Shown here: positions 27,409-58,819 of the stretch, piece by piece
Numbering within the stretch: the stretch's first letter is position 1
How the letters are laid out: every line of letters starts with the position of its first letter
Origin: Owenia fusiformis
Taxonomy: Eukaryota; Annelida; Polychaeta; Sabellida; Oweniidae
Assembly (NCBI GenBank): GCA_903813345.2
Contig: CAIIXF020000001.1
Span: forward strand, 24,851,915 to 24,915,914
Length of the DNA: 64,000 bases
Reading direction: 5' to 3'
Notes under the pieces: generated by a model
The model's database searches: none
Seen by the model: the letters and a program-made list of their open reading frames with translations, nothing else
What the model was told of the DNA's origin: nothing
Position numbers and translations under genes: made by a program

Positions 27409-27466
27409 ATGCCGATTACGAAAATAAAAGTATCACTTTTTATAGTGATATTATTATTAAGTACAA
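27409..27466 (+). CDS. Gene 1 exon 1: signal peptide of giant Thr/Ala/Asp/Val protein
   Basis: ATG starts MPITKIKVSLFIVILLLST, a standard secretion signal with two lysines followed by a ten-residue hydrophobic core. The exon ends at ACAA|GTATGT, a strong 5' splice site after the first base of a codon (phase 1). The huge repeat exon at 35255 begins after an acceptor in the matching phase, so joining gives a continuous frame. The same exon, with related flanking sequence (GT(T/C)GTAGAATGGA upstream and ACAAGTATG at the donor), occurs at 58768 before the second repeat exon. Conservation of the ATG, the hydrophobic stretch, the phase and the donor in both copies is the main support. The protein should enter the secretory pathway. 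Confidence 0.7.
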
Positions 27467-28593
27467 GTATGTATAATTTTCTTCTAAGTAATTTGAGAAA
27501 AACATGATTTAAGGACATTTTACGATGATTGGTGATGACAAAATAAAACTGGAATTCAAATAACAAATATGACAATAAATTTATTTTTGAATGGTACAGG
27601 AAAACATTTTATGATTTCGTTTAAAGTGGCATCTTTGTCCCAATGTTGTCTTCTTGTCGATATGGGAAGATCCAAGGAAATCAAAAATATCTCAATTATT
27701 TTGAACGTTACCTAAATAAAAATGAATCATGATCAACTAATATTACGACTGTTTTAATTCAAAAATAAACATGTTTTCTAAGAATTGTGTATTACTTTGA
27801 TTTTAAATGTATGCAACTCAACACAATTGTTTGAAAATATTTGCTGCAATTAATATACTTTGAATGACCCTATGTTCATAACAATTGCTAAACAAATATG
27901 TAAGATCATGCCTAACCATTTTCAACGCACTATGTCAAAATATACCGCCGTACGGTTTCTCTGAACGTTGGCGCTTCCGCCATTGTAAGTTTCGACGGAG
28001 AGAGCGAGGTAAATAAATAAATATTATTAATTCGTATTAATATTGAGTCATTTTAACACCAAGTAGTCATCGCATTATTTATGTCCTTGCTTTGTAAATA
28101 TTCGTACATATCTACATGGAATAATCTACATCAACATTATTAGCTTGTTATACCTCAACCCATTCGTCATCTAGCTTTAGTTTTTGACTCGATTTCGCAA
28201 AATCCACTCCAATGTTTGTTTTACTGTGTAACAAAAATAGCTACGAATATCTCACCTAAATATATTTGATTTTATGTAGTTCTTGCATTGCGTCATAGAT
28301 CTAGATCAACACCGTGTTATGTTCGCAAAAACATAATTTTTATTTAACTGCAGAAATAACAGTAAAATTACAAATAACATACCTTTATACAAAGGCCGAT
28401 CCAGAAGTTCTGATAAAAATGCTGTATCTCTTTCTAAAGTAAAGGTAATCATCTGAAATTTTTCATATAATTTATATACATGTATAGCCGAAAATCTTCG
28501 GAATAGTGAATTGATAGAACTCTCTATAATCACACTTTTCCTACCCCATGGTAGGGGCACTTGGGCTCATATTGACGTCATAAATCATATTGA
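27467..28593 (+). other. Gene 1 intron 1, first part
   Basis: AT-rich intron sequence up to the LINE insertion. No repeat family or extra exon was recognised. Confidence 0.45.
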
Positions 28594-30380
28594 AAATCTG
28601 TATCAAAATTATTTGAGAAAATGATAACTGACCGAATTAAAAAACACTTAATTTCAAATGATCTTTTGTTCAAGTATCAGTCTGTTTTTTTACCAGGCCA
28701 TAGCACCCATTCTCAACTAATGGCAATTGAAAATTTCTTACTTACAAATTTTGACCGAGGCAAGGCCTCTAAAACAATTTTTCTTGATATTGCGGCTGCT
28801 TTTGACCGTGTTCCGCATAACTTACTTCTTCACAAACTAAGAGCCTATATGGTATTCATGGCCAACTTCTAAACTTATTGAATTCATATCTGACAAATAG
28901 ACGATTTCTGTAAACATTTCTGGTGAGTCATCAGTTACAACTGAAGCAGGCTTCCTAAACTGTGGTGTGCCACAGGGATCAATTTTAGGTCCACTTCTGT
29001 TTATTTTATATATCAACGATCTCCCAGATAATGTAAATTCCAAATGCTACATCTATGCAGATGACACATCTCTTCACTTTATTTTTGAGCCCAAAAAGCC
29101 CCAAGAAATTGATGAATTAGTAAAATCTGATTTATCTGAGATACAAAATTGGTCCAGACTGTGGAAGCTACAATTTAAACCAGAAAAGAGCTATGAAGTT
29201 ATTTTCTTTGGAATTAGAACTAATCCTCAAAATGTAAGCAAATCCTAAGTTACTCTGAAATTGAAAGAACAAATGTACATAAACACCTTGGATATACTTT
29301 TGATCATAATCTAATAAAGGAAATATACAATAAAGTTAGAAAAATGATAAATCCTTTGAAAAATCTTAAAACTAAGTTAAAGTCTAGAGATCTGGAAAAG
29401 TTTTTTAACTCCTTTATAAGACCTCATTTCGACTATGGAACTGCTCTATTTAACAATACGTCAAAAAATCTTCTAAATAGACTTGATAAAATCTACTATC
29501 AGGCTGCTCTTGTGTGCTCTGGTTGTCTTCATGGCAGTAATACTGATAAGGTCTCAAATCTTCTTCAATGGCCTTCTTTAGAAACAAGAAGAAGAATGCA
29601 AATCAAAATCATGTTCAAGGTAGTTAATGGCCCAAATCCACCCTTTCTAGATGAAATCTTCGAGAAGTTCAAAAATCCGGGAACACGAAATTTTCGGGAT
29701 AGATTTGACTTTATTTTACCCACTAGGTGCTCAGAGGAGTTCTTAAATTCATCAATACCATCTGCAATATCAAACTGGTCACAACTACCTAAAATATAAT
29801 AATTCATTTACATACGTAATATGAAAACTTTTCAATCCTTTAAAAAACACCAAAAGATCTTGTTTAAAAATCAAGAAAGTTTTAGTAGCACTTCCAAATA
29901 CTCAATCTGAAAAGATCTCATGAAATTCTAATTAACAGATTTAGAGCCGATCTTCTGAAGCCGAACTTTATGCACATAATTTCATATATATTGATAATCC
30001 AAATTGTAATTGTGGAGCTTCTCAGACAGAAAAACACCTTTTCTTTCAATGTCCTCTCATCAAAGAAAGTATAACCAAATTAAACACTGATCTTATGGAT
30101 ACAACTGGTTCTTCAGACGAACATTCAACTCAGATTGATCTGCTTTACTTAATGAAACATGGTTCTGAAAAAAATTTCCTTGATTTAAATTCAAAACTCC
30201 AAATCCTAATTGCTGAATTCATTGAAACAAACCTATGAGCTCTTTCCCCTCCTTAACAGCGCTTTAAATAATTTTGTCCACATAAATATGTCCACCCCAT
30301 GGTCAACCTCAAGTGTGGTATTAACCCCTTCTATAATGCCATTGGGCGATTGAAAATCTGAAAAACTGAAAAACTAAATC
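28594..30380 (+). mobile_element. 5'-truncated LINE (CR1/Jockey group), decayed
   Basis: The 5' junction lies inside the reverse transcriptase, at KLFEKM. Order: fingers and palm with FLDIAAAFDRVPH (about 28782), then [21 protein letters not shown] (about 28961-29020), the catalytic YADDT (29054-29068), the thumb region, and a carboxy-terminal CNCG...EKHLFFQC motif (about 30010-30055). The coding frame ends at TGA 30236-30238. The 3' tail ends in CTGAAAAACTGAAAAACT. Reading the protein needs at least three frame changes, near 28855, 28910 and 29240, so it is inactive. It sits in intron 1 of gene 1. The endonuclease and first ORF are absent. Confidence 0.85.
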
Positions 30381-31770
30381 CAACTGTGCATTCCTATTTG
30401 AGATAAAACTCAACGAAGATACTCAAATTGACGTCCTTCTGCACATTAATACACTCTGGTATCTATCCACTCACTGTTTGTACACATCTTTGCAGTTCTA
30501 GTGAGGTTTTGACAGCATTCTTGACATATGAGACAACCGGATCCCTCTCTAATATTTTCTAACAATTGTAAAATTAATTGCTGCATATCTTGCCATAACT
30601 TCATTTTCAAAAAGGTTATATCAAAATAAAAATATGGACGTTTTTTGGCCCACCTTGTATGTTCCAATATTTTTGTCCTAAGCATTTGAACGTTGTATAA
30701 TCAATAGAAAGGTTAAGATACACGTTTTTAAAAATAACTTGTGTATGAACGAGTAGAATTGTGGTTTTCTGTGGATTAGTTCTCCCATTTGTACTATTTA
30801 CTTGGACGATTTGAGATCGAAATATTACACGCTCGCGTACAAGTTCTCCTAGAACGTGTTACTAACTAGTATTAGGCGTTAGCGTAATAACCCCGATGAA
30901 CTGTATTGTAAACTGTATTGTTCAGATTCAATGTCAAAAGTGATTTTAAATAAACGTTTTGCATTCATCTTGAGTTATTTTAGAAGGGGATTTGAAGTCT
31001 TATTTCTCTTGGATAATGCATGTCACACATTGTGTGCAATTCGTCAATGGTATAATTCAATTTAATTTTACCAATAAGTTATAATGACTTTGCCTTAACA
31101 AATGAAATAAACTAGTAATAAACAGCATGCTTCTTTACAGTGACGACTGTTAGCTCCTCCTCGCGCAATACATAACCACAATCGCATTCGAATGTCACAA
31201 TGTTCCAAAAGCATGTATGCTCAAAACATTCAACCCAAATGAAACTGAACTTAAATCCCGAATCTCGGAAAGTGCTGTCGAAGATGACAGGACAGAATTG
31301 AGAGAACATTACATCCAGTTATACAAAATTAGTATGCCATGAAATATTTATGAGGAAAATGATGTAAAAGTGTGAACATTTAGATTCATTTTGACATTGC
31401 CACAGGCTGGTATCGAAAGATGTGTCCGCTGTGACGGAGCATGCAATTTTTCATTAAAACACTAAGAATACTTCACGATTTATTTTTTAACTCATATGTT
31501 TCGTTATATCAAAGAAAATTACTATTACTCCATGCAATGGGTATATATCATTTGCGGGTAACCTTCACTTCTGTTTGAAGTCCCATAACGCTAGGAGTAA
31601 AAGCTATTGAAAACGGCGCCAGAGTATCAAACTCTAAAATGTACCATTTATTTTTTAATTTATTTTAATGGCATGATATAGTGACACGATAATATTAACA
31701 TGCGTTTTCAGCATAACTCTGAACGTATTAATGAGATATTGATGTATTGGATCTTTTTAATTCTTTTACA
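30381..31770 (+). other. Gene 1 intron 1, middle part
   Basis: 30957-31055 resembles 59754-59855 in gene 2's intron (TTCATCTTGAGTT then CATGTCA(C/T)ACA), so it belongs to the duplicated locus. Around 30630-30660 the minus strand carries ACAAGGTGGGCCAAAAAAC, similar to a Tc1/mariner terminal repeat. TGTCCGCTGTGACGGAGC near 31422 is one arm of the hairpin family at 31771. No exon is supported. Confidence 0.45.
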
Positions 31771-31870
31771 AAAATAATGTTTATATTTTTTGTCCGCTGT
31801 GACAGAGCAATCTAACAGTTCACATTTGCAGCTGCTCCGTCACAGCGGACAAAGAATATAAACATTATTT
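31771..31870. repeat. Hairpin with TGTCCGCTGTGACGGAGC-type arms
   Basis: Arms 31771-31808 and 31834-31870 are reverse complements with two or three differences, around a 25-bp loop. Another single arm lies near 31422. It abuts the left side of the mariner remnant. Confidence 0.75.
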
Positions 31871-31871
31871 T

Positions 31872-33299
31872 TTCAAACTTGGTCAGGAGCAACATGTATA
31901 TGATAGCTTGGTATTGTATTAATATCATTGAAAAAATATAATATTAACTATGTCATTTGGTTACCATAGTAACAGGACAATGAGGTAGGCGGAGCTGAAT
32001 AAAATCACTGTTTATTACAATTTCTTGTCAAACAATGTGGTATTATTACAGAGTTTTAACGAGGGGTTTTAACATTAATGAAGGCTTTTATTTGATGCAA
32101 TATCAATGTTTATTCTCCCTCAAAATAGTCCCCACCATGGGCCGTGCATTTATTGCATCGTTTTATCCAATCATTGAACACATGCCGAAGTCCATTCTTA
32201 GCGACTGAATACACACTGTTGGTAAAAGCTTCAATCAGCGACTCTTCATCTGCAAAACGAATCCCACGGAGGGGCTTCTTAGCTTCGGGAAACATGTGGA
32301 AGTCACAGGGAGCTGTATCTTTGGCCTATCCAATCCAACTCCACAGTACTGGCTACTCTGTAGCTTGTTCTCTGGGTCGTACTGATAGCCCAATGTTTCA
32401 TCACATGTTATTATTGACTTTAGGAACTCATCGCCCTCCTCTTGGTGTTTCACAATAAAATCCATGCAGGTTTCCACTTTAGCTCTTTTTGTTCAGGTGT
32501 ACGAATCTTTGGGATCCATTTTGCACACTTTCGTCTATATTGTACGTCACCATGGACAAATCTTTGTATTGTTCCATAGCTTTCACATAACTGAGCAGAT
32601 ATTTCACGAAGTGTTATTCGCCGATCTTGTCAAATGAGGTCTTTGACTGCCTGGATCAGGTCCTCATTGCGCACTGTTGGCCTGCCACTTCTCAGATCAT
32701 GCCCAAGAATCTCTTTACCAGATGAAAACTTACCATACCACTGATATACGTGCTTCTGTGTGGTGCATTTTCACCATATGCTAGTTGTATTTCTTTTAAT
32801 GTCTGTTTCCCACTTTTGCCAAGAAGCAAAAAAAAATATTTTCAAGTTTAGCTCCATCTTTCACAGACTTTGGCTCCAATTCGCTGATTCAATGGCTGAA
32901 AATGATCACATGACCAATTTGCTGATTTTCATATTTCTGTGACATCAGATGAATGTTTACTGTGACATCACACTGAAAGTCTATGGAAATGATGCAGGAG
33001 AAACATGTTGTTGGCAACAGGTACATTGATGAATGAAATAGCATTGGTAATCTTCTTGGTTTAGGTTAACCTAAATATGTATACATTTCATAATTCTGAA
33101 TCAAATTCGAGCTCCACCTACCTCATTGTCGTGTTGCTATGGTAACCAAATGGTTATGTTAAAGTTGTAATTTTTCAACCATATTTATGGAACATTAAAC
33201 CATCATATATATGTTGCTCCTGACCAAGTTTGAACAAAATTCACCAAGAAATATTTTTTTAAGAACAAACGGTGGAGAACTTTTGGATCAACCCTCGTA
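31872..33299 (-). mobile_element. Mariner element, truncated at left
   Basis: The right end read on the minus strand starts TACGAGGGTTGATCCAAAAG, a typical mariner terminal repeat. Long inverted repeats continue inward: TTGGTCAGGAGCAACAT and TTTGGTTACCATAG(C/T)AAC occur at both ends, about 31880-31990 and 33120-33240. On the left the outermost 60-70 bp are missing, replaced by the hairpin at 31771-31870. It carries a decayed transposase on the minus strand and lies in intron 1 of gene 1. Confidence 0.85.
32110..32857 (-). pseudogene. Mariner transposase pseudogene
   Basis: Read on the minus strand, fragments match the mariner transposase in order. They are an amino-terminal helix-turn-helix region (EIQLAYGEN, VYQWYGKFSSGKE, LRSGRPTV), a linker (WIPKIRTPEQKEL), the first catalytic motif (FLKSIITCDET, about 32385-32415), and the carboxy end (FPEAKKPLRGIRFADEESL to GGDYFEGE). 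There are at least two frameshifts, near 32755 and 32475, and an in-frame stop in the linker region. An internal deletion near 32325 removes the segment that should hold the second catalytic Asp. It cannot encode an active enzyme. The start was placed at the first ATG in register with the amino-terminal match. Confidence 0.85.
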
Positions 33300-33350
33300 A
33301 AAGGCTAAATATTGTGCAAAAACAGGAGTTGACACGCTTACATTTGGAAT

Positions 33351-34197
33351 TGAAAGGATAGGTATCGATATGGAGAACTGGATTCAACAATGTTTTTCTC
33401 TTAAACAAATCATTGAAAACATTCTGTAAAAAACATGGTATTTTAAGTAAAGTTGACTGATTGACAACAACTTAATGCGAAAATTATTTTGAAATATTTT
33501 ATATAACTGTTTATTTTATAACATTTTTTGTTTTTTTTAGAGCAATTGTTTTTGAACCTTGTTGGAACAAAATAGCATATATAACATGTTTTAGACCTCT
33601 CAATATTAAAGTTATACAAAGGAATTTTTGGTTGATTTTAAAAAAGTATTCAAAAAATTAAAACAAAATCCCCCCAAAATAGATAAAAATCAAGAAAAAA
33701 CTTTTATTTCAATAACAAGATACTTTTTTAAAATCAACAAAAATTTCCTTTGTACAATTACAATATTGAGAGACCTAAACATGTTGTGTTTATGTCGTTT
33801 TGTTCCAATGAGGTTCGGAAAGATGTTCCATTTGACTCTGAAAACATGATACCAAGAACAAAACAAGTGTTTGATGTGTTTTTTAAAACAATATAGATGA
33901 AAATATGTATATCTATTTCAAATTATATTGTTACCATTCAAAAGATCGCCATTAAATTGACAATTTGTAAGATTTTCAGAATTTTTTGATGACTGGTTAA
34001 GAGAAACGTGTGTTCAAAAAGTTCGCCATATCGAACAATATAAATGAAAATATGTATATCTATTTCAAATTATATTGTTACCATTCAAAAGATCGCCATT
34101 AAATTGACAATTTGTAAGATTTTCAGAATTTTTTGATGACTGGTTTAAGAGAAACGTGTGTTCAAAAAGTTTGCCATATCGATACCCATTCTTTCCT
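33351..34197. repeat. Nested palindromic element
   Basis: The outer arms are inverted: GGTATCGATATGG near 33361 and CCATATCGATACC near 34172, with TTTCTCTTAAAC shared inward. Inside lies a second hairpin (33552-33650 against 33718-33818, sharing CTCTCAATATT and TTGATTTTAAAAAAGTAT). There is also a tandem duplication of about 147 bp (33889-34035 and 34036-34183). Non-coding. Confidence 0.65.
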
Positions 34198-34669
34198 ACA
34201 TGATTGTCGATTCGTGTTTAAAAGTCATCAAAACAAGGTTGAAGATAAAACATTGACCCATACTGTCTATTTAGCATGGGATCACTAAGGGAAATAATAT
34301 TAATGACTTAAATCGTTAACGGTTAAGTTGTATTCCAAGAAACTTATCAATTTAGAAATGCAAAATGTTCAATATTGTTTTTCAATTATTAAAAATGGCA
34401 CCTGTATAGAGAACAACGTTTACAAAATTATTTAAAACGGAGATATTTACTTATGTAACATTCGTTTGCATGTGTCAGGGAGTAAATACGAAGAATATCC
34501 TTTTGATTCTATATCTTGTTCCCAAAGGAATTTGTTAAGGAGCGGTATATCTTAACGTACTTTTATCATCCCGAACTCAAACATTTCGAATACTTATTTC
34601 GAGAACGCTTTGTTAAGAATATATTCGAGATGTACTCAAAATTAGTACGTTAAAATGTGTATTGTCATC
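34198..34669 (+). other. Gene 1 intron 1, nothing recognised
   Basis: AT-rich intron sequence without repeat or exon signals that can be named. Confidence 0.4.
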
Positions 34670-34969: not shown

Positions 34970-35254
34970 TAACCACCTCAAAAATTATTTTGGAAATCAA
35001 AGATGTACGATTTTTGAGATTTTATTTTCGAATGTTGACTCAGTTACCCGACTTGACTGTTATACTCCCACTCACCCCAGAAAACACCACTTTAAATTTT
35101 AAGAATTTTTTACTTCCTCACAGCCATATTTTTAGATAAAACAAGGAGAATGGGCTCTCAGGATCGAAACTTGATATATTTCAACAATGAAAACGTCAAA
35201 ATGTCATCATTTTTTTCAAAAGATTCGAACTAATATCTCGATCATTTCTTACAG

Positions 35255-38200
35255 CTACAGTTGATAATACAACAACTACAGTGGCTAGCACAACTACGGC
35301 TGATGCTACAACAACAGTTGCTGACGCAACTACAGTGGCTGGCGCAACTACGGCAGATACCACAGCAGCTGATGCTACAACTACAGTGGCTGACACAACT
35401 ACAGGTGATGCTACTACAACAGTTGCTGATGCAACAACGGCTGATGTTACAACAACAGTAGCTGACACAACTACAGTGGCTGACGCAACTACGGCAGATA
35501 CTACAGCAGCTGATGCCACAACTACAGTGGCTGACACAACTACAGCTGATGCTACCACAACAGTTGCTGACACAACTACAGTGGCTGACGTAACTACGGC
35601 AGATACTACAGCATCCGATGCTACAACAACAGTTGCTGACGCAACTACAGTTGCTGACACAACTACAGCTGATGCTACAACAACAGTTGCTGATGCAACA
35701 ACGGCTGACGTTATAACAACAGTAGCTGACACAACTACAGTGGCTGACGCAACTACGGCAGATACGACAGCAGCTGATGCTACAACTACAGTGGCTGACA
35801 CAACCACAGCTGATGCTACAATAACAGTTGCTGATGCAACAACGACCGATGTTACAACAACAGTTGCTGACACAACTACAGTGGCTGACGCAACTACGGC
35901 AGATACTACAGCATCCGATGCTACAACAACAGTTGCTGACGCAACTACAGTTGCTGACACAACTACAGCTGATGCTACAACAACAGTTGCTGATGCAACA
36001 ACGGCTGACGTTATAACAACAGTAGCTGACACAACTACAGTGGCTGGCGCAACTACGGCAGATACTACAGCAGCTGATGCTACAAGTACAGTGGCTGACA
36101 CAACTACAGCTGATGCTACAACAACAGTTGCTGATGCAACAACGGCTGATGTTACAACAACAGTAGCTGACACAACTACAGTGGCTGACGCAACTACGGC
36201 AGATACTACAGCAGCTGATGCTACAACTACAGTGGCTGACACAACTACAGCTGATGCTACAACAACAGTTGCTGATGCAACGACGGCTGATGTAACAACA
36301 ACAGTTGCTGACACAACTACAGTGGCTGACGCAACTACGGCAGATACTACAGCAGCTGATGCTACAACTACAGTGGCTGACACAACTACAGCTGATGCTA
36401 CAACAACAGTTGCTGATGCAACGACGGCTGATGTAACAACAACAGTTGCTGACACAACTACAGTGGCTGACGCAACTACGGCAGATACTACAGCAGGTGA
36501 TGCTACAATCACAGTGGCTGACACAACTACAGCTGATGCTACAACAACAGTTGCTGATGCAACGACGGCTGATGTTACAACAACAGTAGCTGACACAACT
36601 ACAGTGGCCGACGCAACTACGGCAGATACTACAGCAGCTGATGCTACAACTACAGTGGTTGAAACAACTACAGCTGATGCTACAACAACAGTTGCTGATG
36701 TAACAACGGCTGATGTTACAACAACAGTTGCTGACATAACTACAGTGGCTGATACAACTACGGCAGAGACTACATCAGCTGATGCTACAACTACAGTGGC
36801 TGACACAACTACAGCTGATGCTACAACAACAGTTACTGATGTAACAACGGCTGATGTTACAACAACAGTTGCTGACATAACTACAGTGGCTGATACAACT
36901 ACGGCAGAGACTACAGCAGCTGATGCTACAACTACATTGGCTGACACAACTACAGCTGATGCTACAACAACGGTTGCTGATGCAACAACGGCTGATGTTA
37001 CAACAACAGTTGCTGACATAACTACAGTGGCTGACGCAACTACGGCAGATACTACAGCAGCTGATGCTACAACTACAGTGGCTGACACAACTACAGCTGA
37101 TGCTACAACAACAGTTGCTGATGCAACAACGGCTGATGTTACAACAACAGTTGCTGAAACAACTACAGTGGCTGACGCAACTACGGCAGATACTACAGCA
37201 GCTGATGCTACAACTACAGTGGCTTACACAACTACAGCTGAGGCTACAACAACAGTTACTGATGCAACAACGGCTGATGTTACAACAACAGTAGCTGACA
37301 CAACTACAGTGGCTGACACAACTACGGCAGATACTACAGCAGCTGATGCTACAACAACAGTTGCTGATGCAACAACGTCTGATGTTTCAACAACAGTTGC
37401 TGACACAACTACAGTGGCTGACGCAACTACAGCTGATGCTACAACAACGGTTGCTGATGCAACAACGGCTGATGTTACAACAACAGTTGCTGACATAACT
37501 ACAGTGGCTGATACAACTACGGCAGAGACTACAGCAGCTGATGCTACAACTACATTGGCTGACACAACTACAGCTGATGCTACAACAACGGTTGCTGATG
37601 CAACAACGGCTGATGTTACAACAACAGTTGCTGACATAACTACAGTGGCTGACACAACTACAGCTGATGCTACAACAACGGTTGCTGATGCAACAACGGC
37701 TGATGTTACAACAACAGTTGCTGACATAACTACAGTGGCTGACGCAACTACGGCAGATACTACAGCAGCTGATGCTACAACTACAATGGCTGACACAACT
37801 ACAGCTGATGCTACAACAACAGTTGCTGATGCAACAACGGCTGATGTTACAACAACAGTTGCTGACACAACTACAGTGGCTGACGCAACTACGGCAGATA
37901 CTACAGCAGCTGATGCTACAACTACAGTGGCTGACACAACTACAGCTGAGGCTACAACAACAGTTACTGATGCAACAACGGCTGATGTTACAACAACAGT
38001 AGCTGACACAACTACAGTGGCTGACACAACTACGGCAGATACTACAGCAGCTGATGCTACAACTACAGTGGCTGACACAACTACGGCAGATACTACAGCA
38101 GCTGATGCTACAACAACAGTTGCTGATGCAACAACGGCTGATGTTTCAACAACAGTTGCTGACACAACTACAGTGGCTGACGCAACTACAGCTGATGCTA

Positions 38201-41200
38201 CAACAACAGTTGCTGATGCAACAACGGCTGATGTAACAACAACAGTTGCTGACACAACTACAGTGGCTGACGCCACTACGGCAGATACTACAGCATCTGA
38301 TGCTACAACTACAGTGGCTGACACAACTACAGCTGACGCTACAACAACAGTTGCTGATGCAACAACGGCTGATGTTATAACAACAGTTGCTGACGCAACT
38401 ACAGTTGCTGACACAACTACAGCTGATGCTACAACAACAGTTGCTGATGCAACAACGGCCGATGTTACAACAACAGTTGCTGACACAACTACAGTGGCTG
38501 ACGCAACTACGGCAGATACTACAGCAGCTGATGCTACAAGTACAGTGGCTGACACAACTACAGCTGATGCTACAGCAACAACGGCTGGTGTTACAACAAC
38601 AGTAGCTGACACAACTACAGTGGCTGACGCAACTACGGCTGATACTACAGCAGCTGATGCTACAAGTACAGTGGCTGACACAACTACAGCTGATGCTACA
38701 ACAACAGTAGCTGACACAACTACAGTTGCTGACGGAACTACAGCTGATGCTACAACAACAGTTGCTGATGCAACAACGGGTGATGTTACAACAACAGTGG
38801 CTGACGCAACTACGGCAGATACTACAGCAGCTGATGCTACAAGTACAGTGGCTGACACAACTACAGCTGATGCTACAACAACAGTTGCTGGTGCAACAAC
38901 GGCTGATGTTACAACAACAGTAGCTGACACAACTACAGTGGCTGACGCAACTACGGCAGATACTACAGCATCTGATGCTACAACTACAGTGGCTGACACA
39001 ACTACAGCTGACACTACAACAACAGTTGCTGATGCAACAACGGCTGATGTTACAACAACAGTTGCTGACGCAACTACAGTTGCTGACACAACTACAGCTG
39101 ATGCTTTAACAACAGTTGCTGATGCAACAACAGCTGATGTTACATCAACAGTTGCTGACACAACTACAGTGGCTGACGCAACTACGGCAGATACTACAGC
39201 AGCTGATGCTACAAGTACAGTGGCTGACACAACTACAGCTGATGCTACAACAACAGTTGCTGGTGCAACAACGGCTGATGTTACAACAACAGTAGCTGAC
39301 ACAACTACAGTGGCTGACGCAACTACGGCAGATACTACAGCAGCTGATGCTACAAGTACAGTGGCTGACACAACTACAGCTGATGCTACAACAACAGTTG
39401 CTCATGCAACAACGGCTGATGTTACAACAACAGTAGCTGTCACAACTTCAGTGGCTGACGCAACTACGGCAGATACTACAGCAGCTGATGCTACAACTAC
39501 AGTGGCTGACATAACTACAGCTGATGCTACAACAACAGTTGCTGATGCAACGACGACTGATGTTACAACAACAGTTGCTGACACAACTACATTGGCTGAC
39601 GCAACTACGGCAGATACTACAGCAACTGATGCTACAACTACAGTGGCTGACGCAACTACGGCAGATACTACAGCAGCTGATGCTACAACAACAGTTGCTG
39701 ATGCAACAACGGCTGATGTTTCAACAACAGTTGCTGACACAACTACAGTAGCTGACACAACTACAGCTGATGCTACAACAACAGTTGCTGATGCAACAAC
39801 GGCTGATGTTACAACAACAGTTGCTGACACAACTACAGTGGCTGACACAACTACGGCAGATACTACAGTTGCTGATGCAACAACGGCTGATGTTACAACA
39901 ACAGTAGCTGACACAACTACAGTGGCTGACACAACTACGGCAGATACTACAGCAACTGATGCTACAACTACAGTGGCTGACACAACTACAGCTGATGCTA
40001 CAACAACAGTTGCTGATGCAACAACGGCTGATGTTACAACAACAGTAGCTGACACAACTACAGTGGCTGACACAACTACAGCTGATGCTACAACAACAGT
40101 TGCTGATGCAACAACGGCTGATGTTACAACAACAGAATCTGACACAACTACAGTTGCTGACGCAACTACGTCAGATACGACAGCAGCTGATGCTACAATT
40201 ACAGTGGCTGACACAACTACAGCTGATGCTACAACAACAGTTGCTGATGCAACAACGGCTGATGTAACAACAACAGTAGCTGACACAACTACAGTTGCTG
40301 ACGGAACTACAGCTGATGCTACAACAACAGTTGCTGATGCAACAACGGCTGATGTTACAACAACAGTAGCTGACACAACTACAGTGGCTGACGCAACTAC
40401 TGCAGATACGACAGCAGCTGATGCTACAACTACAGTGGCTGACACAACTACAGCTGATGCTACAACAACAGTTGCTGATGCAACAACGGCTGATGTTACA
40501 ACAACAGAAGCTGTCACAACTACAGTGGCAGACGCAACTACAGCAGATACTACAGCAGCTGATGCTACAATTACAGTGGCTGACACAACTACAGCTGATG
40601 CTACAACAACAGTTGCTGGTTCAACAACGGCTGATGTTACAACAACAGTAGCTGACACAACTACAGTGGCTGACGCAACTACGGCAGATACTACAGCAGC
40701 TGATGCTACAAGTACAGTGGCTGACACAACTACAGCTGATGCTACAACAACAGTTGCTGATGCAACAACGGCTGATGTTACAACAACAGTTGCTGACACA
40801 ACTACAGTGGCTGACGCAACTACGGCAGATATTACAGCAGCTGATGCTACAACTACAGTGGCTGACACAACTACAGCTCATGCTACAACAACAGTTGCTG
40901 ATGCAACAATGGCTGATGTTACAACAACAGTAGCTGACACAACTACAGTGGCTGACGCAACTACGGCAGATACTACAGCATCTGAGGCTACAACTACAGT
41001 GGCTGACACAACTACAGCTGACGCTACAACAACAGTTGCTGATGCAACAACGGCTGATGTTACAACAACAGTTGCTGACGCAACTACAGTTGGTGACACA
41101 ACTACAGCTGATGCTTTAACAACAGTTGCTGAGGCAACAACGGCTGATGTTACAACAACAGTTGCTGACACAACTACAGTGGCTGACGCAACTACGGCAG

Positions 41201-44200
41201 ATACTACAGCAGCTGATGCTACAAGTACAGTGGCTGACACAACTACAGCTGATGATACAACAACAGTTGCTGGTGCAACAACGGCTGATGTTACAACAAC
41301 AGTAGCTGACACAACTACAGTGGCTGACACAACTACGGCAGATACTACAGCAACTGATGCTACAACTACAGTGGCTGACACAACTACAGCTGATGCTACA
41401 ACAACAGTTGCTGATGCAACAACGGCTGATGTTACAACAACAGTAGCTGACACAACTACAGTGGCTGACACAACTACGGCAGATACTACAGCAGCTGATG
41501 CTACAACAACAGTTGCTGATGCAACAACGGCTGATGTTTCAACAACAGTTGCTGACACAACTACAGTGGCTGACACAACTACAGCTGATGCTACAACAAC
41601 AGTTGCTGATGCAACAATGGCTGATGTTACAACAACAGTTGCTGACACAACTACAGTGGCTGACGCAACTACGGCAGATACTACAGTTGCTGATGCAACA
41701 ACGGCTGATGTTACAACAACAGTAGCTGACACAACTACAGTGGCTGACGCAACTACGGCAGATACTACAGCAGCTGATGCTACAACTACAGTGGCTGACA
41801 CAACTACAGCTGATGCTACAACAACAGTTGCTGATGCAACAACGGCTGATGTTACAACAACAGTTGCTGACATAACTACAGTGGCTGACGCAACTACGGC
41901 AGATACTACAGCAGCTGATGCTACAAGCACAGTGGCTGACACAACTACAGCTGATGCTACAACAACAGTTGCTGATGCAACAACGGCTGATGATACAACA
42001 ACAGTAGCTGACACAACTACAGTGGCTGACGCAACTACGGCAGATACTACAGCAGCTGATGCTACAACTACAGGGGCTGACACAACTACAGCTGATGCTA
42101 CAACAACAGTTGCTGATGCAACAACGGCTGATGTTACAACAACAGAGTCTGACACAACTACAGTTGCTGACGCAACTACGGCAGATACGACAGCAGCTGA
42201 TGCTACAACTACAGTGGCTGACACAACTACAGCTGATGCTACAACAACAGTTGCTGATGCAACAACGGCTGATGTAACAACAACAGTAGCTGACACAACT
42301 ACAGTTGCTGACGGAACTACAGCTGATGCTACAACAACAGTTGCTGATGCAACAACGGCTGATGTTACAACAACAGTAGCTGACACAACTACAGTGGCTG
42401 ACGCAACTACGGCAGATACGACAGCAGCTGATGCTACAACTACAGTGGCTGACACAACTACAGCTGATGCTACAACAACAGTTGCTGATGCAACAACGGC
42501 TGATGTTACAACAACAGTAGCTGTCACAACTACAGTGGCTGACGCAACTACGGCAGATACTACAGCAGCTGATGCTACAATTACAGTGGCTGACACAACT
42601 ACAGCTGATGCTACAACAACAGTTGCTGGTGCAACAACGGCTGATGTTACAACAACAGTAGCTGACACAACTACAGTGGCTGACGCAACTACGGCAGATA
42701 CTACAGCAGCTGATGCTACAAGTACAGTGGCTGACACAACTACAGCTGATGCTACAACAACAGTTGCTGATGCAACAACGGCTGATGTTACAACAACAGT
42801 TGCTGACACAACTACAGTGGCTGACGCAACTACGGCAGATACTACAGCAGCTGATGCTACAACTACAGTGGCTGACACAACTACAGCTCATGCTACAACA
42901 ACAGTTGCTGATGCAACAACGGCTGATGTTACAACAACAGTAGCTGACACAACTACAGTGGCTGGCGCAACTACGGCAGATACTACAGGATCTGATGCTA
43001 CAACTACAGTGGCTGACACAACTACAGCTGACGCTACAACAACAGTTGCTGATGCAACAACGGCTGATGTTACAACAACAGTTGCTGACGCAACTACAGT
43101 TGCTGACACAACTACAGCTGATGCTTTAACAACAGTTGCTGATGCAACAACGGCTGATGTTACAACAACAGTTGCTGACACAACTACAGTGGCTGACGCA
43201 ACTACGGCAGATACTACAGCAGCTGATGCTACAAGTACAGTGGCTGACACAACTACAGCTGATGCTACAACAACAGTTGCTGGTGCAACAACGGCTGATG
43301 TTACAACAACAGTAGCTGACACAACTACAGTGGCTGACGCAACTACGGCAGATACTACAGCAGCTGATGCTACAACTACAGTGGCTGACACAACTACAGC
43401 TGATGCTACAACAACAGTTGCTGATGCAACAACGGCTGATGTTACAACAACAGTTGCTGACATAACTACAGTGGCTGACGCAACTACGGCAGATACTACA
43501 GCAGCTGATGCTACAAGCACAGTGGCTGACACAACTACAGCTGATGCTACAACGACAGTTGCTGATGCAACAACGGCTGATGTTACATCAACAGTAGCTG
43601 GCACAACTACAGTGGCTGACGCAACTACGGCATATACTACAGCAGCTGATGCTACAACTACAGGGGCTGACACAACTACAGCTGATGCTACAACAACAGT
43701 TGCTGATGCAACAACGGCTGATGTTACAACAACAGAATCTGACACAACTACAGTTGCTGACGCAACTACGGCAGATACGACAGCAGCTGATGCTACAACT
43801 ACAGTGGCTGACACAACTACAGCTGATGCTACAACAACAGTTGCTGATGCAACAACAGCTGATGTAACAACAACAGTAGCTGACACAACTTCAGTTGCTG
43901 ACAGAACTACAGCTGATGCTACAACAACAGTTGCTGATGCAACAGCGGCTGATGTTACAACAACAGTAGCTGACACAACTACAGTGGCTGACGCAACTAC
44001 GGCAGATACGACAGCAGCTGATGCTACAAGTACAGTGGCTGACACAACTACAGCTGATGCTACAACAACAGTTGGTGATGCAACAACGGCTGATGTTACA
44101 ACAACAGTAGCTGTCACAACTACAGTGGCTGACGCAACTACGGCAGATACTACAGCAGCTGATGCTACAACTACAGTGGCTGACACAACTACAGCTGATG

Positions 44201-47200
44201 CTACAACAACAGTTGCTGATGCAACGACGACTGATGTTACAACAACAGTTGCTGACACAACTACAGTGGCTGACGCAACTACGGCAGATACTACAGCAAC
44301 TGATGCTACAACTACAGTGGCTGACACAACTACAGCTGATGCTACAACAACGGTTGCTGATGCAACAACGGCTGATGTTACAACAACAGTTGCTGACACA
44401 ACTACAGTGGCTGACGCAACTACAGCAGATACTACAGTAGCTGATGCTACAAGTACAGTGGCTGACACAACTACAGCTGATGCTACAACAACAGTTGCGG
44501 GTGCAACAACGGCTGATGTTACATCAACAGTAGCTGACACAACTACAGTGGCTGACGTAACTACGGCAGATACTACAGCAGCTGATGCTACAAGTACAGT
44601 GGCTGACACAACTACAGCTGATGCTACAACAACGGTTGCTGATGCAACAACGGCTGATGTTACAACAACAGTTGCTGACACAACTACAGTGGCTGACGCA
44701 ACTACGGCAGATACTACAGCAGCTGATGCTACAACTACAGTTGCTGACACAACTACAGTGGCTGACACAACTACAGCTGATGCTACAATAACAGTTGCTG
44801 ATGCAACAACGGCTGATGTTACAACAACAGTAGCTGACACAACTACAGCTGATGCTACAACAACAGTTGCTGATGCAACAACGGCTGATGTTACAACAAC
44901 AGTAGCTGACACAACTACAGTGGCTGACACAACTACGGCAGATACTACAGCAGCTGATGCTACAACAACAGTTGCTGATGCAACAACGACTGATGTTTCA
45001 ACAACAGTTGCTGACACAACTACAGTGGCTGACACAACTACAGCTGATGCTACAACAACAGTTGCTGATGCAACAATGGCTGATGTTACAACAACAGTTG
45101 CTGACACAACTACAGTGGCTGACGCAACTACGGCAGATACTACAGTTGCTGATGCAACAACGGCTGATGTTACAACAACAGTTGCTGACACAACTACAGT
45201 GGCTGACACAACTACAGCTGATGCTACAATAACAGTTGCTGATGAAACAACGGCTGATGTTACAACAACAGTAGCTGACACAACTACAGTGGCTGACGCA
45301 ACTACAGCAGATACTACAGTAGCTGATGCTACAAGTACAGTGGCTGACACAACTACAGCTGATGCTACAACAACAGTTACTGATGCAACAACGGCTGATG
45401 TTACAACAACAGTAGCTGACACAACTACAGTGGCTGACGCAACTACGGCAGATACTACAGCAGCTGATGCTACAACTACAGTGGCTGACACAACTACAGC
45501 TGATGCTACAACAACAGTTGCTGATGCAACAACGGCTGATCTTACAACAACAGTAGCTGACACAACTACAGTGGCTGACGCAACTACGGCAGATACTACA
45601 GCAGCTAATGCTACAACAACAGTGGCTGACACAACTACAGTGGCTGACGCAACTACGGCAGATACTACAGCAGCTGATGCTACAACTACAGTGGCTGACA
45701 CAACTACAGCTGATGCAACAACAACAGTTGCTGATGCTACAACGGCTGATGTTACAACAACAGTAGCTGACACAACTACAGTGGCTGACGCAACTACGGC
45801 AGATACTACAGCAGCTGATGCTACAACTACAGTGGCTGACACAACTACAGCTGATGCTACAACAACAGTTGCTGATGCAACAACGGCTGATGTTACAACA
45901 ACAGTAGCTGACACAACTACAGTGGCTGACGCAACTACGGCAGATACTACAGCAGCTGATGCTACAACTACAGTGGCTGACACAACTACAGCTGATGCTA
46001 CAACAACAGTTGCTGACACAACTACAGTGGCTGAAGCAACTACGGCAGATACTACAGCAGCTGATGCTACAACTACAGTGGCTGATACAACTACAGCTGA
46101 TGCTACAACAACAGTTGCTGATGCAACAACGGCTGATGTTACAACAACAGTAGCTGACACAACTACAGTGGCTGACGCAACTACGGCAGATACTACAGCA
46201 GCTGATGCTACAACTACAGTGGCTGACACAACTACAGCTGATGCTACAACAACAGTTGCTGATGCAACAACGGCTGATGTTACAACAACAGTAGCTGACA
46301 CAACTACAGTGGCTGACGCAACTACGGCAGATACTACAGCAGCTGATGCTACAACTACAGTGGCTGACACAACTACAGCTGATGCTACAACAACAGTTGC
46401 TGATGCAACAACGGCTGATGTTACAACAACAGTAGCTGGCACAACTACAGTGGCTGACGCAACTACGGCAGATACTACAGCAGTTGATGCTACAACTACA
46501 GTGGCTGACACAACAATAGCTGATGCTACAACAACTTTTGCTGATGCTACAACGGCTGATGTTACAACAACAGTAGCTGACACAACTACAGTGGCTGACG
46601 CAACTACGGCAGATACTACAGCAGCTGATGCTACAACTACAGTGGCTGACACAACTACAGCTGATGCTACAACAACAGTTGCTGATGCAACAACGGCTGA
46701 TGTTACAACAACAGTAGCTGACACAACTACAGTGGCTGACGCAACTATGGCAGATACTACAGCAGCTGATGCTACAACTACAGTGGCTGACACAACTACA
46801 GCTGATGCTACAACAACAGTTGCTGATGCAACAACGGCTGATGTTACAACAACAGTAGCTGACACAACTATAGTGGCTGACGCAACTACGGCAGATACTA
46901 CAGCTGCTGATGCTACAACAACAGAGGCTGACACATTTTCAGGTGATGCTACAACAACAGTTGCTGATGCAACAACGGCTGATGTTACAACAACAGTAGC
47001 TGACACAACTACAGTGGCGGACGCAACTACGGCAGATACTACAGCAGCTGATGCTACAACTACAGTGGCTGACACAACTACAGCTGATGCTACAACAACA
47101 GTTGCTGATGCAACAACGGCTGATGCTACAACAACAGTAGCTGACACAACTACAGTGGCTGACGCAACTACGGCAGATACTACAGCAGCTGATGCTACAA

Positions 47201-50200
47201 CAACAGAGGCTGACACAACTACAGTGGCTGACGCAACTACGGCAGATACTACAGCAGCTGATGCTACAACTACAGTGGCTGACACAACTACAGCTGATGC
47301 TACAACAACAGTTGCTGATGCTACAACGGCTGATGTTACAACAACAGTAGCTGACACAACTACAGTGGCTGACGCAACTACGGCAGATACTACAGCAGCT
47401 GATGCTACAACTACAGTGGCTGACACAACTACAGCTGATGCTACAACAACAGTTGCTGATGCAACAACGGCTGATGTTACAACAACAGTAGCTGACACAA
47501 CTACAGTGGCTGACGCAACTACGGCAGATACTACAGCAGCTGATGCTACAACTACAGTGGCTGACACAACTACAGCTGATGCTACAACAACAGTTGCTGA
47601 CACAACTACAATGGCTGAAGCAACTACGGCAGATACTACAGCAGCTGATGCTACAACTACAGTGGCTGATACAACTACAGCTGATGCTACAACAACAGTT
47701 GCTGATGCAACAACGGCTGATGTTACAACAACAGTAGCTGACACAACTACAGTGGCTGACGCAACTACGGCAGATACTACAGCAGCTGATGCTACAACTA
47801 CAGTGGCTGACACAACTACAGCTGATGCTACAACAACAGTTGCTGATGCAACAACGGCTGATGTTACAACAACAGTAGCTGACACAACTACAGTGGCTGA
47901 CGCAACTACGGCAGATACTACAGCAGCTGATGCTACAACTACAGTGGCTGACACAACTACAGCTGATGCTACAACAACAGTTGCTGATGCAACAACGGCT
48001 GATGTTACAACAACAGTAGCTGGCACAACTACAGTGGCTGACGCAACTACGGCAGATACTACAGCAGCTGATGCTACAACTACAGTGGCTGACACAACAA
48101 TAGCTGATGCTACAACAACTTTTGCTGATGCTACAACGGCTGATGTTACAACAACAGTAGCTGACACAACTACAGTGGCTGACGCAACTACGGCAGATAC
48201 TACAGCAGCTGATGCTACAACTACAGTGGCTGACACAACTACAGCTGATGCTACAACAACAGTTGCTGACACAACTACAGTGGCTGATGCAACTACGGCA
48301 GATACTACAGCAGCTGATGCTACAACTACAGTGGCTGATACAACAATAGCTGATGCTACAACAACTTTTGCTGATGCTACAACGGCTGATGTTACAACAA
48401 CAGTAGCTGACACAACTACAGTGGCTGACGCAACTACGGCAGATACTACAGCAGCTGATGCTACAACTACAGTGGCTGACACAACTACAGCTGATGCTAC
48501 AACAACAGTTGCTGATGCAACAACGGCTGATGTTACAACAACAGTAGCTGACACAACTACAGTGGCTGACGCAACTATGGCAGATACTACAGCAGCTGAT
48601 GCTACAACTACAGTGGCTGACACAACTACAGCTGATGCTACAACAACAGTTGCTGATGCAACAACGGCTGGTGTTACAACAACAGTAGCTGACACAACTA
48701 CAGTGGCTGACGCAACTACGGCAGATACTACAGCAGCTGATGCTACAACAACAGAGGCTGACACATTTTCAGGTGATGCTACAACAACAGTTGCTGATGC
48801 AACAACGGCTGATGTTACAACAACAGTAGCTGGCACAACTACAGTGGCTGACGCAACTACGGCAGATACTACAGCAGCTGATGCTACAACTACAGTGGCT
48901 GACACAACAATAGCTGATGCTACAACAACTTTTGCTGATGCTACAACGGCTGATGTTACAACAACAGTAGCTGACACAACTACAGTGGCTGACGCAACTA
49001 CGGCAGATACTACAGCAGCTGATGCTACAACTACAGTGGCTGACACAACTACAGCTGATGCTACAACAACAGTTGCTGATGCAAAAACGGCTGATGTTAC
49101 AACAACAGTAGCTGACACAACTACAGTGGCTGACGCAACTACGGCAGATACTACAGCAGCTGATGCTACAACTACAGTGGCTGACACAACTACAGCTGAT
49201 GCTACAACAACAGTTGCTGATGCAACAACGGCTGATGTTACAACAACAGTAGCTGGCACAACTACAGTGGCTGACGCAACTACGGCAGATACTACAGCAG
49301 CTGATGCTACAACTACAGTGACTGACACAACAACAGCTGATGCTACAACAACTTTTGCTGATGCTACAACGGCTGATGTTACAACAACAGTAGCTGACAC
49401 AACTACAGTGGCTGACGCAACTACGGCAGATACTACAGCAGCTGATGCTTCAACTACAGTGGCTGACACAACTACAGCTGATGCTACAACAACAGTTGCT
49501 GATGCAACAACGGCTGATGTTACAACAACAGTAGCTGGCACAACTACAGTGGCTGACGCAACTACGGCAGATACTACAGCAGCTGATGCTACAACAACAG
49601 AGGCTGACACATTTTCAGGTGATGCTACAACAACAGTTGCTGATGCAACAACGGCTGATGTTACAACAACAGTAGCTGACACAACTACAGTGGCTGACGC
49701 AACTACGGCAGATACTACAGCAGCTGATGCTACAACTACAGTGGCTGACACAACTACAGCTGATGCTACAACAACAGTTCCTGATGCAACAACGGCTGAT
49801 GTTACAACAACAGTAGCTGACACAACTACAGTGGCTGACGCAACTACGGCAGATACAACAGCAGCTGATGCTACAACAACAGAGGCTGACACATTTTCAG
49901 GTGATGCTACAACAACAGTTGCTGATGCAACAACGGCTGATGTTACAACAACAGTAGCTGACACAACTACAGTGGCTGATGCAACTACGGCAGATACTAC
50001 AGCAGCTGATGCTACAACTACAGTGGCTGACACAACTACAGCTGATGCTACAACAACAGTTGCTGATGCAACAACGGCTGATGTTACAACAACAGTAGCT
50101 GACACAACTACAGTGGCTGACGCAACTACGGCAGATACTACAGCAGCTGATGCTACAACTACAGTGGCTGACACAACTACAGCTGATGCTACAACAACAG

Positions 50201-51748
50201 TTGCTGATGCAACAACGGCTGATGCTACAACAACAGTAGCTGACACAACTACAGTGGCTGACGCAACTACAGCTGATGCTACAACAACAGTTGCTGATGC
50301 AACAACGGCTGATGTTACAACAACAGTAGCTGACACAACTACAGTGGCTGACGCAACTACGGCAGATACTACAGCAGCTGATGCTACAAGTACAGTGGCT
50401 GACACAACTACAGCTGATGCTACAACAACGGTTGCTGATGCAACAACGGCTGATGTTACAACAACAGTTGCTCACACAACTACAGTGGCTGACCTAACTT
50501 CGGCAGATACTACAGCAGCTGATACCACAAGTACAGTGGCAGACACATCTACAGCTGATGCTACAACAACAGGTGCTGATGCAACAACAGCTGATGTTAC
50601 AACAACAGTAGCTGACACAACTACTGTGGCTTACGCAACTACGGCAGATACTACAGCAGCTGATGCTACAAGTACAGTGGCTGACACAACTACAGCTGAT
50701 GCTACAACAACAGTTGCTGATGCAACAACGGCTGATGTTACAACAGCAGTTGCTGACACAACTACAGTGGCTGACGCAATGACGGCAGATACTACAGCAG
50801 CTGATGCTACAAGTACAGTGGCTGACACAACTACAGCTGATGCTACAACAACAGTTGCTGATGCAACAACGGCTGATGTTACAACAACAGTAGCTGACAC
50901 AACTACAGTGGCTGACGCAACTACGGCAGATACTACAGCAGCTGATGCTACAACTACAGTGGCTGACACAACTGCAGCTGATGCTACAACAACAGTTGCT
51001 GATGCAACAACGGCTGATGTTACAACAGCAGTTGCTGACACAACTACAGTGGCTGACGCAACTACGGCAGATTCTACAGCAGCTGATGCTACAAGTACAG
51101 TGGCTGACACAACTACAGCTGATGCTACAACAACAGTTGCTGATGCAACAACGGCTGATGTTACAACAACAGTAGCTGACACAACTACAGTGGCTGACGC
51201 AACTACGGCAGATACTACAGCAGCTGATGCTACAACTACAGTGGCTGACACAACTGCACCTGATGCTACAACAACAGTTGCTGATGCAACAACGGCTGAT
51301 GTTACAACAACAGTTGCTGACACAACTACAGTGGCTGACGCAACTACGGCAGATACTACAGCAGCTGATGCTACAACAACAGTTGCTGATTCAACAACGG
51401 CTGATGTTACAACAACAGTAGCTGACACAACTACAGTGGCTGACGCAACTACGGCAGAAACTACAGCAGCTGATGCTACAACTACAGTGGCTGACACAAC
51501 AACAGCTGATGCTACAACAACAGTTGCTGATGCAACAACGGCTGATGTTACAACAACAGTTGCTGACACATCTACAGTGGCTGACGCAACTACGGCAGAT
51601 ACTACAGCAGCTGATGCTATAAGTACAGTGGCTGACACAACTACAGCTGATGCTACAACAACAGTTGCTGATGCAACAACGGCTGATGTTACAACAACAG
51701 TAGCTGACACAACTACAGTGGCTGACGCAACTACGGCAGCTTCTACAG
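35255..51748 (+). CDS. Gene 1 exon 2: giant Thr/Ala/Asp/Val repeat exon
   Basis: A single 16,494-bp exon of about 5,497 codons with no stop. The acceptor is TTTCTTACAG|CT at 35245-35254. The donor is CTACAG|GTACAAG at 51749. Both junctions are phase 1 and the length is a multiple of three, so the exon is symmetric. The consensus unit is 47 residues (141 bp): eight modules of 6, 6, 4, 7, 6, 6, 6 and 6 residues such as VADTTT, VADATT, ADTT, AADATTT and ADVTTT. The composition per unit is 21 Thr, 13 Ala, 8 Asp and 5 Val. About 117 unit lengths fit, some units lacking modules. Pro, Cys and basic residues are almost absent. With the signal peptide upstream this predicts a very long, highly acidic, secreted, probably O-glycosylated polymer. 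It resembles mucin domains by Thr content but lacks their Pro. No known family is recognised and the function is open. Confidence 0.8.
45727..48184 (+). repeat. 1,584-bp higher-order duplication inside the array
   Basis: Rare variants recur at exactly 1,584 bp: GTTGCTGATGCTACAACGG at 45727 and 47311, GCTGAAGCAACTACGG at 46030 and 47614, and CAACAATAGCTGATGC at 46511 and 48095. The 64 residues encoded in another frame at 45959-46153 and 47543-47737 are identical. A large recent block duplication is therefore superimposed on the 141-bp unit. 1,584 is 3 x 528, so the frame is kept. Confidence 0.85.
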
Positions 51749-51832
51749 GTACAAGTTCAGGGAATAATGCTCTCATTCGAAAGTTTATATTTTTAATGAA
51801 ATTTTCACATAACATCCAAAATATCTTGTTAT

Positions 51833-58767: not shown

Positions 58768-58819
58768 ATGGCGATTGCAACAACAATAGTGCCACTCCTC
58801 CTTGTGGTGTTATCAACAA
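58768..58819 (+). CDS. Gene 2 exon 1: signal peptide of paralogous repeat protein
   Basis: ATG starts MAIATTIVPLLLVVLST, a secretion signal with a hydrophobic core. The exon ends ACAA|GTATGA in phase 1, exactly as in gene 1. About 60 bp upstream also align with gene 1 (CGTCGTAGAATGGATTATTA against CGTTGTAGAATGGAATACTA). It lacks the lysines seen in gene 1's signal. The next coding sequence in the same phase and orientation is the repeat exon at 61809. Confidence 0.65.

What the first reader, a model, noticed from the sequence alone, without database searches (positions are those of the whole stretch)
27409..51748. Secreted giant protein built from four amino acids
A signal-peptide exon and a 16.5 kb exon in matching phase predict a roughly 5,500-residue protein. 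Its consensus uses only Thr (45%), Ala (28%), Asp (17%) and Val (11%), in a 47-residue unit of eight Ala-Asp modules. One Asp every six residues or so gives on the order of 900 acidic residues and almost no basic ones. Mucin domains are Thr-rich but normally contain Pro and Ser. Repeats with regular Thr spacing also occur in antifreeze and beta-solenoid proteins. I do not recognise this family. Mucus, adhesive, mineral-matrix or ice-binding roles are all speculation.
Basis: partly seen in the sequence, partly recalled or inferred. Interest (0 to 1): 0.85.

Follow-up and report, generated by a model that had tools for sequence, protein, structure and literature searches.

The report
Giant proline-free MUC4-like membrane mucin
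The four-amino-acid repeat is most likely the sugar-carrying stalk of an enormous cell-surface mucin, built like human MUC4 but almost free of proline, and the same repeat turns up in neighbouring giant mucin genes that anchor to the membrane in different ways.

Summary
Exon 35255-51748 is one open frame (T 43.5, A 26.5, D 16.2, V 10.6%; 915 acidic and 2 basic of 5,500 residues), with a phase-1 signal-peptide exon at 27409-27466.

The stand-alone secreted protein is probably only the start of a gene. The apparent stop (51850-51852) lies in the terminal repeat of a dispersed transposon about 85 bases past a donor site. Two further array exons follow, then exons for NIDO, AMOP, VWD (with GDPH), MUC4-type C8-3, EGFs, SEA, a membrane span and a tail. 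My 29-exon model is in phase, has no internal stop and gives 19,795 residues. This is MUC4 architecture plus a SEA domain (reported in sea-anemone MUC4-like proteins). The repeat domain has 0.14% proline, so it fails the usual PTS criterion.

A SEA/EGF membrane mucin upstream carries the same repeat (18-exon partial model, 42,909 residues, one exon of 61,478 nt). A minus-strand array about 0.55 Mb away ends directly in a membrane span. Repeats are about as similar between genes as between most exons of one gene.

These are predictions without RNA evidence. Some minus-strand arrays have interrupted frames, and residue identity evolves near-neutrally. The genome is probably an annelid.

The parts
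27409..27466 (+). Signal-peptide exon A (MPITKIKVSLFIVILLLST, phase-1 donor GTATGT)
   Evidence: homologous to exon B
35255..51748 (+). Array exon 1 of the mucin-like domain, 16,494 nt, phase 1 in and phase 1 out, 5,498 codons of Thr/Ala/Asp/Val repeats
51833..53684 (.). Inserted transposon (190-nt terminal inverted repeats, 97% complementary) in the intron after array exon 1; supplies the stop (51850-51852) that makes the exon look like a stand-alone gene. Not part of the protein in the preferred model
   Evidence: inverted repeat; 39 further matches of about 192-194 bases at 98-99% on many contigs
58768..58819 (+). Signal-peptide exon B (MAIATTIVPLLLVVLST, phase-1 donor GTATGA): alternative first exon or start of a tandem duplicate
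61809..64000 (+). Array exon 2, cut by the window end (runs to 75533 in window numbering, C1:24913723-24927447, 13,725 nt). Array exon 3 and the NIDO/AMOP/VWD/C8-3/EGF/SEA/membrane-span/tail exons lie beyond the window (C1:24939617-24977115)

Best explanation
The array is the first of three giant exons encoding the O-glycosylated, strongly acidic stalk of a MUC4-like membrane mucin. Shown by sequence: an open 16.5-kb exon; a signal exon in matching phase; two further array exons in the same phase; then exons with Pfam NIDO, AMOP, VWD with a GDPH motif, MUC4-type C8-3, EGF and SEA matches, one hydrophobic membrane span and a basic-start cytoplasmic tail ending in a stop; 29 exons, 19,795 residues in the model. 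Inferred: splicing joins these exons; the roughly 7,600 Thr carry O-glycans; VWD/GDPH and SEA regions may be cleaved so that the stalk is held non-covalently or shed, as proposed for MUC4; the product forms a very long, hydrated, negatively charged glycocalyx on an epithelium. Symmetric phase-1 array exons let stalk length change by exon gain, loss or skipping, and unequal exchange in and between neighbouring mucin genes keeps the repeat uniform.
For: Exon chain with AG/GT sites, consistent phases, single terminal stop. Pfam on the 1,662-residue C-terminal model: NIDO 68.1 bits (cut-off 25), VWD 42.6 (22.9), C8-3_MUC4 32.1 (25), SEA 33.9 (26.4), EGF_CA 135.4 (27); AMOP 25.2 (25.0) on the excised region. 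GDPH is in the VWD exon, as in human MUC4 (PMC8660890, passages). All 8 modelled array exons in two genes are entered in phase 1. The exon's apparent stop is transposon sequence. A neighbouring gene uses the same repeat between SEA and EGF exons ahead of a membrane span. No frameshift in 54 kb of array exons W1-W3.
Against: No transcript or protein evidence. Several splice sites are weak: donor after array exon 1 (CAG|GTACAAG), acceptor of array exon 2 (TTTGAAG|AT), donor AAT|GTGTTG in the NIDO part. I chose sites to keep phase, so phase agreement is partly by construction except at the array boundaries. AMOP was not reported and only just passes. Pro is 0.14% and Ser 1.45%, below the usual PTS definition. 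Substitutions within units look near-neutral. Tandem signal exons leave open whether array 1 and array 2 belong to one gene. Some minus-strand arrays are split into short frames.
Confidence: 0.8

Rival explanations
1. Stand-alone secreted protein: signal exon A plus array exon 1 read through to the stop at 51850-51852, about 5,550 residues, transcript ending near 54.36 kb.
For: The frame is open to 51849; AATAAA at 54355 and 54376; a second signal exon lies just before array 2, as if a new gene began.
Against: The stop is inside a dispersed transposon's terminal repeat; a donor in phase 1 ends the repeat at 51748; arrays 2 and 3 continue in the same phase into membrane-mucin exons.
Confidence: 0.09
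2. Tandem duplicates with alternative or separate starts: exon A + array 1 is an extra or truncated 5' copy, and the working MUC4-like gene begins at exon B (58768) with arrays 2 and 3 (about 14,300 residues).
For: Exons A and B are paralogous with similar upstream sequence, and two more signal-like exons lie upstream at C1:24842.7k (weak match) and 24848.1k.
Against: Array 1 keeps donor and frame with no decay; its 16.5 kb would be unconstrained if it had no downstream partner.
Confidence: 0.2
3. Non-coding satellite that is open by composition alone.
For: Consensus codons cannot mutate to stops in one step; rare synonymous and non-synonymous variants are about equally frequent; some related arrays have interrupted frames.
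Against: No frameshift in 54 kb here or in the 125 kb of array exons of the neighbour model, although other frames are full of stops; array exons are bounded by splice signals and joined to recognisable domains.
Confidence: 0.03
4. Folded Thr-rich beta-solenoid (ice-binding, adhesive or mineral matrix) rather than an extended glycosylated stalk.
For: AlphaFold draws strands about every 12 residues.
Against: Mean pLDDT 53.3, no residue at 70 or above, the five models spread from 31 to 53: not interpretable. Module lengths of 5, 6 and 7 residues alternate irregularly for a regular solenoid. The C-terminal architecture is that of a membrane mucin. One PDB match at E 0.96 only.
Confidence: 0.06

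Closest known systems
MUC4 (vertebrate membrane mucin)
   Same: Signal peptide, giant tandem-repeat exon, NIDO, AMOP, VWD with GDPH, C8-3_MUC4, EGF, membrane span, tail (human layout from passages of PMC8660890)
   Different: Three array exons rather than one; repeat almost without Pro and Ser and with 16% Asp; a SEA domain before the last EGF exons, which vertebrate MUC4 lacks; many more EGF domains. Longest human MUC4 VNTR allele reported 27,843 bp against 54,060 nt in three exons here (PMC13345508, passages)
MUC4-like proteins of sea anemones (Actinia tenebrosa)
   Same: NIDO-AMOP-VWD with an additional C-terminal SEA in some candidates (PMC9080433, passages)
   Different: Stalk length and a four-residue repeat of this kind are not described in the passages I saw
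MUC3/MUC12/MUC17-type SEA/EGF membrane mucins
   Same: The neighbouring gene: mucin stalk, SEA, EGF, membrane span, tail. Human MUC12 can reach 23,080 residues and holds the largest human coding exon (PMC13345508, passages)
   Different: Five array exons separated by SEA and EGF exons; same Pro-poor repeat; partial model already 42,909 residues
Antifreeze glycoproteins (Ala-Ala-Thr repeats; recalled, not searched)
   Same: Small alphabet rich in Thr and Ala, plausible O-glycosylation on Thr
   Different: No Asp in those repeats; not membrane anchored; far shorter

Membership tests
MUC4-like membrane mucin | NIDO domain | tested here: met
   PF06119 68.1 bits, cut-off 25
MUC4-like membrane mucin | AMOP domain | tested here: met
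   PF03782 25.2 bits, cut-off 25.0, on the excised region; not reported on the longer sequence, so marginal
MUC4-like membrane mucin | VWD domain with GDPH site, and MUC4-type C8-3 | tested here: met
   PF00094 42.6 (22.9), PF23263 32.1 (25); ATYSIGDPHIETLDG in the model
MUC4-like membrane mucin | EGF domains, one membrane span, cytoplasmic tail | tested here: met
   EGF_CA 135.4 bits over 8 stretches; hydrophobic span and tail read by eye, no predictor run
MUC4-like membrane mucin | N-terminal signal peptide joined in frame | tested here: inconclusive
   Candidate exon with phase-1 donor; no signal-peptide predictor and no cDNA available; four candidate first exons exist
Vertebrate MUC4 (strict orthologue) | No SEA domain | tested here: not met
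   SEA 33.9 and 38.0 bits, cut-off 26.4; not filed as MUC4 proper
PTS-type mucin domain | More than 40% Ser+Thr | tested here: met
   43.5% over 17,990 residues; criterion as quoted in PMC9080433
PTS-type mucin domain | About 5% proline | tested here: not met
   Pro 26 of 18,011, 0.14%
PTS-type mucin domain | Dense O-glycosylation | not testable with these tools
   No glycoproteomics
Beta-solenoid / ice-binding repeat | Confident repetitive beta fold | tested here: inconclusive
   pLDDT 53.3, pTM 0.52

The most novel reading that the evidence does not exclude
One proline-free Thr/Ala/Asp/Val repeat is shared and kept uniform by exchange among neighbouring membrane-mucin genes with unrelated anchors (NIDO-AMOP-VWD-EGF, SEA-EGF, and a bare membrane span), so stalk and anchor evolve as separate modules. 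One of these genes encodes a single polypeptide of more than 42,900 residues, longer than titin (titin size recalled).
Probability: 0.4. Interest if true: 0.82.

Novelty: new variant of a known kind. Interest (0 to 1): 0.63.

Why it matters
If true, it shows that a mucin stalk can be made almost without proline and serine and with about one charge every six residues. It also makes stalk length and sequence a property exchanged between genes of different anchor class, which can be tested with long-read cDNA and population assemblies. Predicted sizes (19,795 and at least 42,909 residues) would put an invertebrate's surface mucins at or beyond the upper end of known animal proteins. At 0.25 nm per residue (recalled figure for glycosylated mucins) the stalk would be roughly 4.5 micrometres long, an inference only. 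It also explains why such loci look like orphan satellites or orphan giant genes in annotation.

Tried and rejected
Stand-alone secreted gene: kept only as a rival because its stop is transposon sequence. Point-substitution evidence for purifying selection: tried and not convincing. dN/dS by exon on 47-codon units was 0.69, 0.55, 0.72 (W1-W3) and 1.31, 0.98, 0.71, 0.74, 0.68 (U1-U5), and variants seen at most three times were no rarer at non-synonymous sites. Both counts use only units spaced exactly 47 codons and starting with TTAADAT (372 units), so units of other lengths were dropped. Beta-solenoid: AlphaFold too weak to use; I did not run fold search on it. Organism: COX1 search found nothing; an assembly-size text search gave two unrelated papers. 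Signal exon of the upstream gene: not found in C1:24670001-24680323. Literature: searches listed nothing on this locus or repeat; one search showed 15 of 2,639 papers and 12 of 2,896, so this is a weak negative.

Searches that did not help: solved structures with the repeat (one hit, E 0.96); with the NIDO-to-C8-3 part two FCGBP chains matched.
Full report
OBSERVATION. The window is C1:24851915-24915914 of a 498.26-Mb assembly in 525 contigs; genome position = window position + 24,851,914. A frame of 5,553 codons is open over 35191-51852. Composition over 5,500 residues is T 43.45, A 26.45, D 16.24, V 10.62%, with 915 acidic and 2 basic residues. The 47-residue consensus with eight Asp is as described. 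The signal exon at 27409-27466 and the array acceptor agree in phase 1.

IS IT CODING? Two points weaken the naive argument. No consensus codon can become a stop by one base change, so point mutation alone would leave the frame open. Substitutions between units look near-neutral: per-exon dN/dS estimates run from 0.55 to 1.31, and rare variants are not depleted at non-synonymous sites. What remains is frame. The other two sense frames of the exon hold 114 and 792 stops, so an uncompensated frameshift would be visible at once, yet the three array exons of this gene (54,060 nt) have none, and their translation holds 1 Q and no W or C. Small length changes do occur in frame: in the neighbouring gene 43 of the Asp-to-Asp segments are 3, 7 or 8 residues long instead of 4 to 6, although at least nine of these come from SEA or EGF sequence. 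The antisense frames of up to 2,527 codons are by-products of the composition.

WHERE THE GENE GOES. The read-through stop is not a natural gene end. It lies in a 190-nt terminal inverted repeat (51833-52022, partner 53495-53684, 97% complementary). That sequence has 39 further matches of about 192-194 bases at 98-99% on many contigs. The repeat itself ends at a phase-1 donor at 51748. Beyond the window a second array exon (C1:24913723-24927447) and a third (24939617-24963457; frame of 7,982 codons) follow in the same phase. A donor at 24963457 then leads to 25 further exons. The resulting model has 29 exons and 19,795 residues with a single terminal stop at 24977115. One exon end (24968880) was corrected, because the first choice gave an internal stop.

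DOMAINS. On the 1,662-residue C-terminal part Pfam gives NIDO 68.1 bits (cut-off 25), VWD 42.6 (22.9), C8-3_MUC4 32.1 (25), SEA 33.9 (26.4), EGF_CA 135.4 (27; 8 stretches) and EGF 51.4 (21.5). AMOP was not reported there but reaches 25.2 bits (cut-off 25.0) on the excised region. The VWD exon contains GDPH, the site at which human MUC4 is putatively cleaved (PMC8660890, passages). A hydrophobic span (LLEWQIIVIAISGGFALIMLILGCTVCCSMYY) and a tail ending HEEYF-stop follow. This is the MUC4 layout. The SEA domain is a difference from vertebrate MUC4 but has been reported in sea-anemone MUC4-like proteins (PMC9080433, passages).

THE STALK IS UNUSUAL. Over 18,011 residues: T 42.08, A 27.37, D 16.43, V 10.58, S 1.45, P 0.14%. 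Net acidic charge is 16.5 per 100 residues. The predicted backbone is 1.91 MDa with pI 4.05. Ser+Thr above 40% is met, about 5% Pro is not; these are the criteria as quoted in PMC9080433.

THE NEIGHBOURS. On the same strand upstream, array frames of 4,933, 2,820, 4,694, 8,700 and 20,518 codons alternate with SEA and EGF exons. SEA: 28.3 bits on the joined halves of one cassette, and 43.5 and 40.6 on two others, cut-off 26.4; single halves scored below cut-off. EGF_CA: 34.7 to 43.0, cut-off 27. They lead to a Ser/Thr-rich exon, SEA, EGF, EGF, a membrane span and a tail. An 18-exon model without its signal exon and last tail exons is in phase throughout, has no stop and gives 42,909 residues (backbone 4.12 MDa); one exon is 61,478 nt. 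The tail has one strong match in the genome, itself; 17 weaker matches lie in its EGF part. On the minus strand, an array frame near C1:25.457 Mb runs directly into a membrane span and a short acidic tail without a known domain (L036). That makes three anchor types around one repeat. Of 292 protein-level matches to the repeat, the 150 listed are all on C1 between 24.71 and 25.58 Mb.

EXCHANGE BETWEEN GENES. The 47-codon consensus is the same in W1-W3 and U1-U5 apart from one or two codons. For 77 windows of 282 nt from W1-W3 the best match was in the same exon for 63, another exon of the same gene for 9 and the upstream gene for 5. Mean best identities were 97.0, 94.7 and 95.4%. The upstream arrays are larger, which favours them in a best-of search. 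Longest exact shared stretches: W1-W3 497, W1-minus-strand 300, W1-U5 219, W1-W2 152 bases. Repeats therefore do not sort cleanly by gene, which suggests recent transfer or gene conversion. Interlocus gene conversion is reported at the human MUC4/MUC20 locus (PMC13345508, passages).

RESULTS AGAINST. No RNA or protein data were available. Some minus-strand arrays are split into frames of 4,390, 311, 682, 11,793 and 199 codons, so not every array is intact; this may be decay or assembly error. At least two signal-like exons precede exon A (one a weak match), and exon B precedes array 2, so one gene with several starts and tandem genes both remain possible. Several splice sites are weak, and I chose sites to keep phase. 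AlphaFold on 189 residues with 13 rows gave pLDDT 53.3 and cannot settle the fold.

ORGANISM. Three matches over cut-off to Eryth_link_C (PF16915; the family's restriction to annelids is recalled, and the 14 control genomes are prokaryotes and say little) suggest an annelid. Assembly size 498.26 Mb and long contigs up to C12 resemble Owenia fusiformis (505.8 Mb, 12 chromosome-scale scaffolds; PMC9977687, passages), but identity is not shown.

VERDICT. A new variant of a known kind: a MUC4-like membrane mucin with a nearly proline-free acidic stalk. It sits in a cluster where the same stalk repeat serves three kinds of membrane anchor.

Noticed in passing
C1:24680323-24836001 (outside the window, upstream): SEA/EGF membrane-mucin gene with the same repeat; partial model 42,909 residues, one exon of 61,478 nt.
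   Followed up: yes
L036, minus strand, near C1:25.4563-25.4572 Mb: Repeat array that ends directly in a predicted membrane span and short acidic tail, a third anchor type.
   Followed up: partly
C1:25.49-25.58 Mb, minus strand: Arrays with interrupted frames and very uniform spacing of 282 bp between listed matches; decay or assembly error.
   Followed up: no
C1:24842.7k, 24848.1k and window 27409, 58768: Four signal-peptide-like first exons with GT in phase 1; the one at 24848.1k is followed by a Thr-rich frame at 24849181.
   Followed up: partly
window 51833-53684: Transposon with 190-nt terminal inverted repeats, many near-identical copies in the genome.
   Followed up: partly
window 7644-9050 and 17362-19851: Retroelement-like frames; the second has two zinc knuckles (44.2 bits) and a sub-threshold aspartyl protease match.
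   Followed up: partly
window about 28600-30300: Degenerate sequence that reads like a LINE reverse transcriptase by eye; the 191-aa frame at 29224 has no Pfam match.
   Followed up: partly
window 60554-61357: Five copies of a 162-bp tandem repeat upstream of array 2.
   Followed up: no
C11:14353979-14355308; C7, C12, C10 and C1 loci: Further AMOP/VWD-type relatives (best 58% identity) elsewhere in the genome; none of the 150 listed repeat matches lies near them.
   Followed up: no
C2:30693437: A SEA relative (47% identity) in a 756-aa frame on another chromosome.
   Followed up: no
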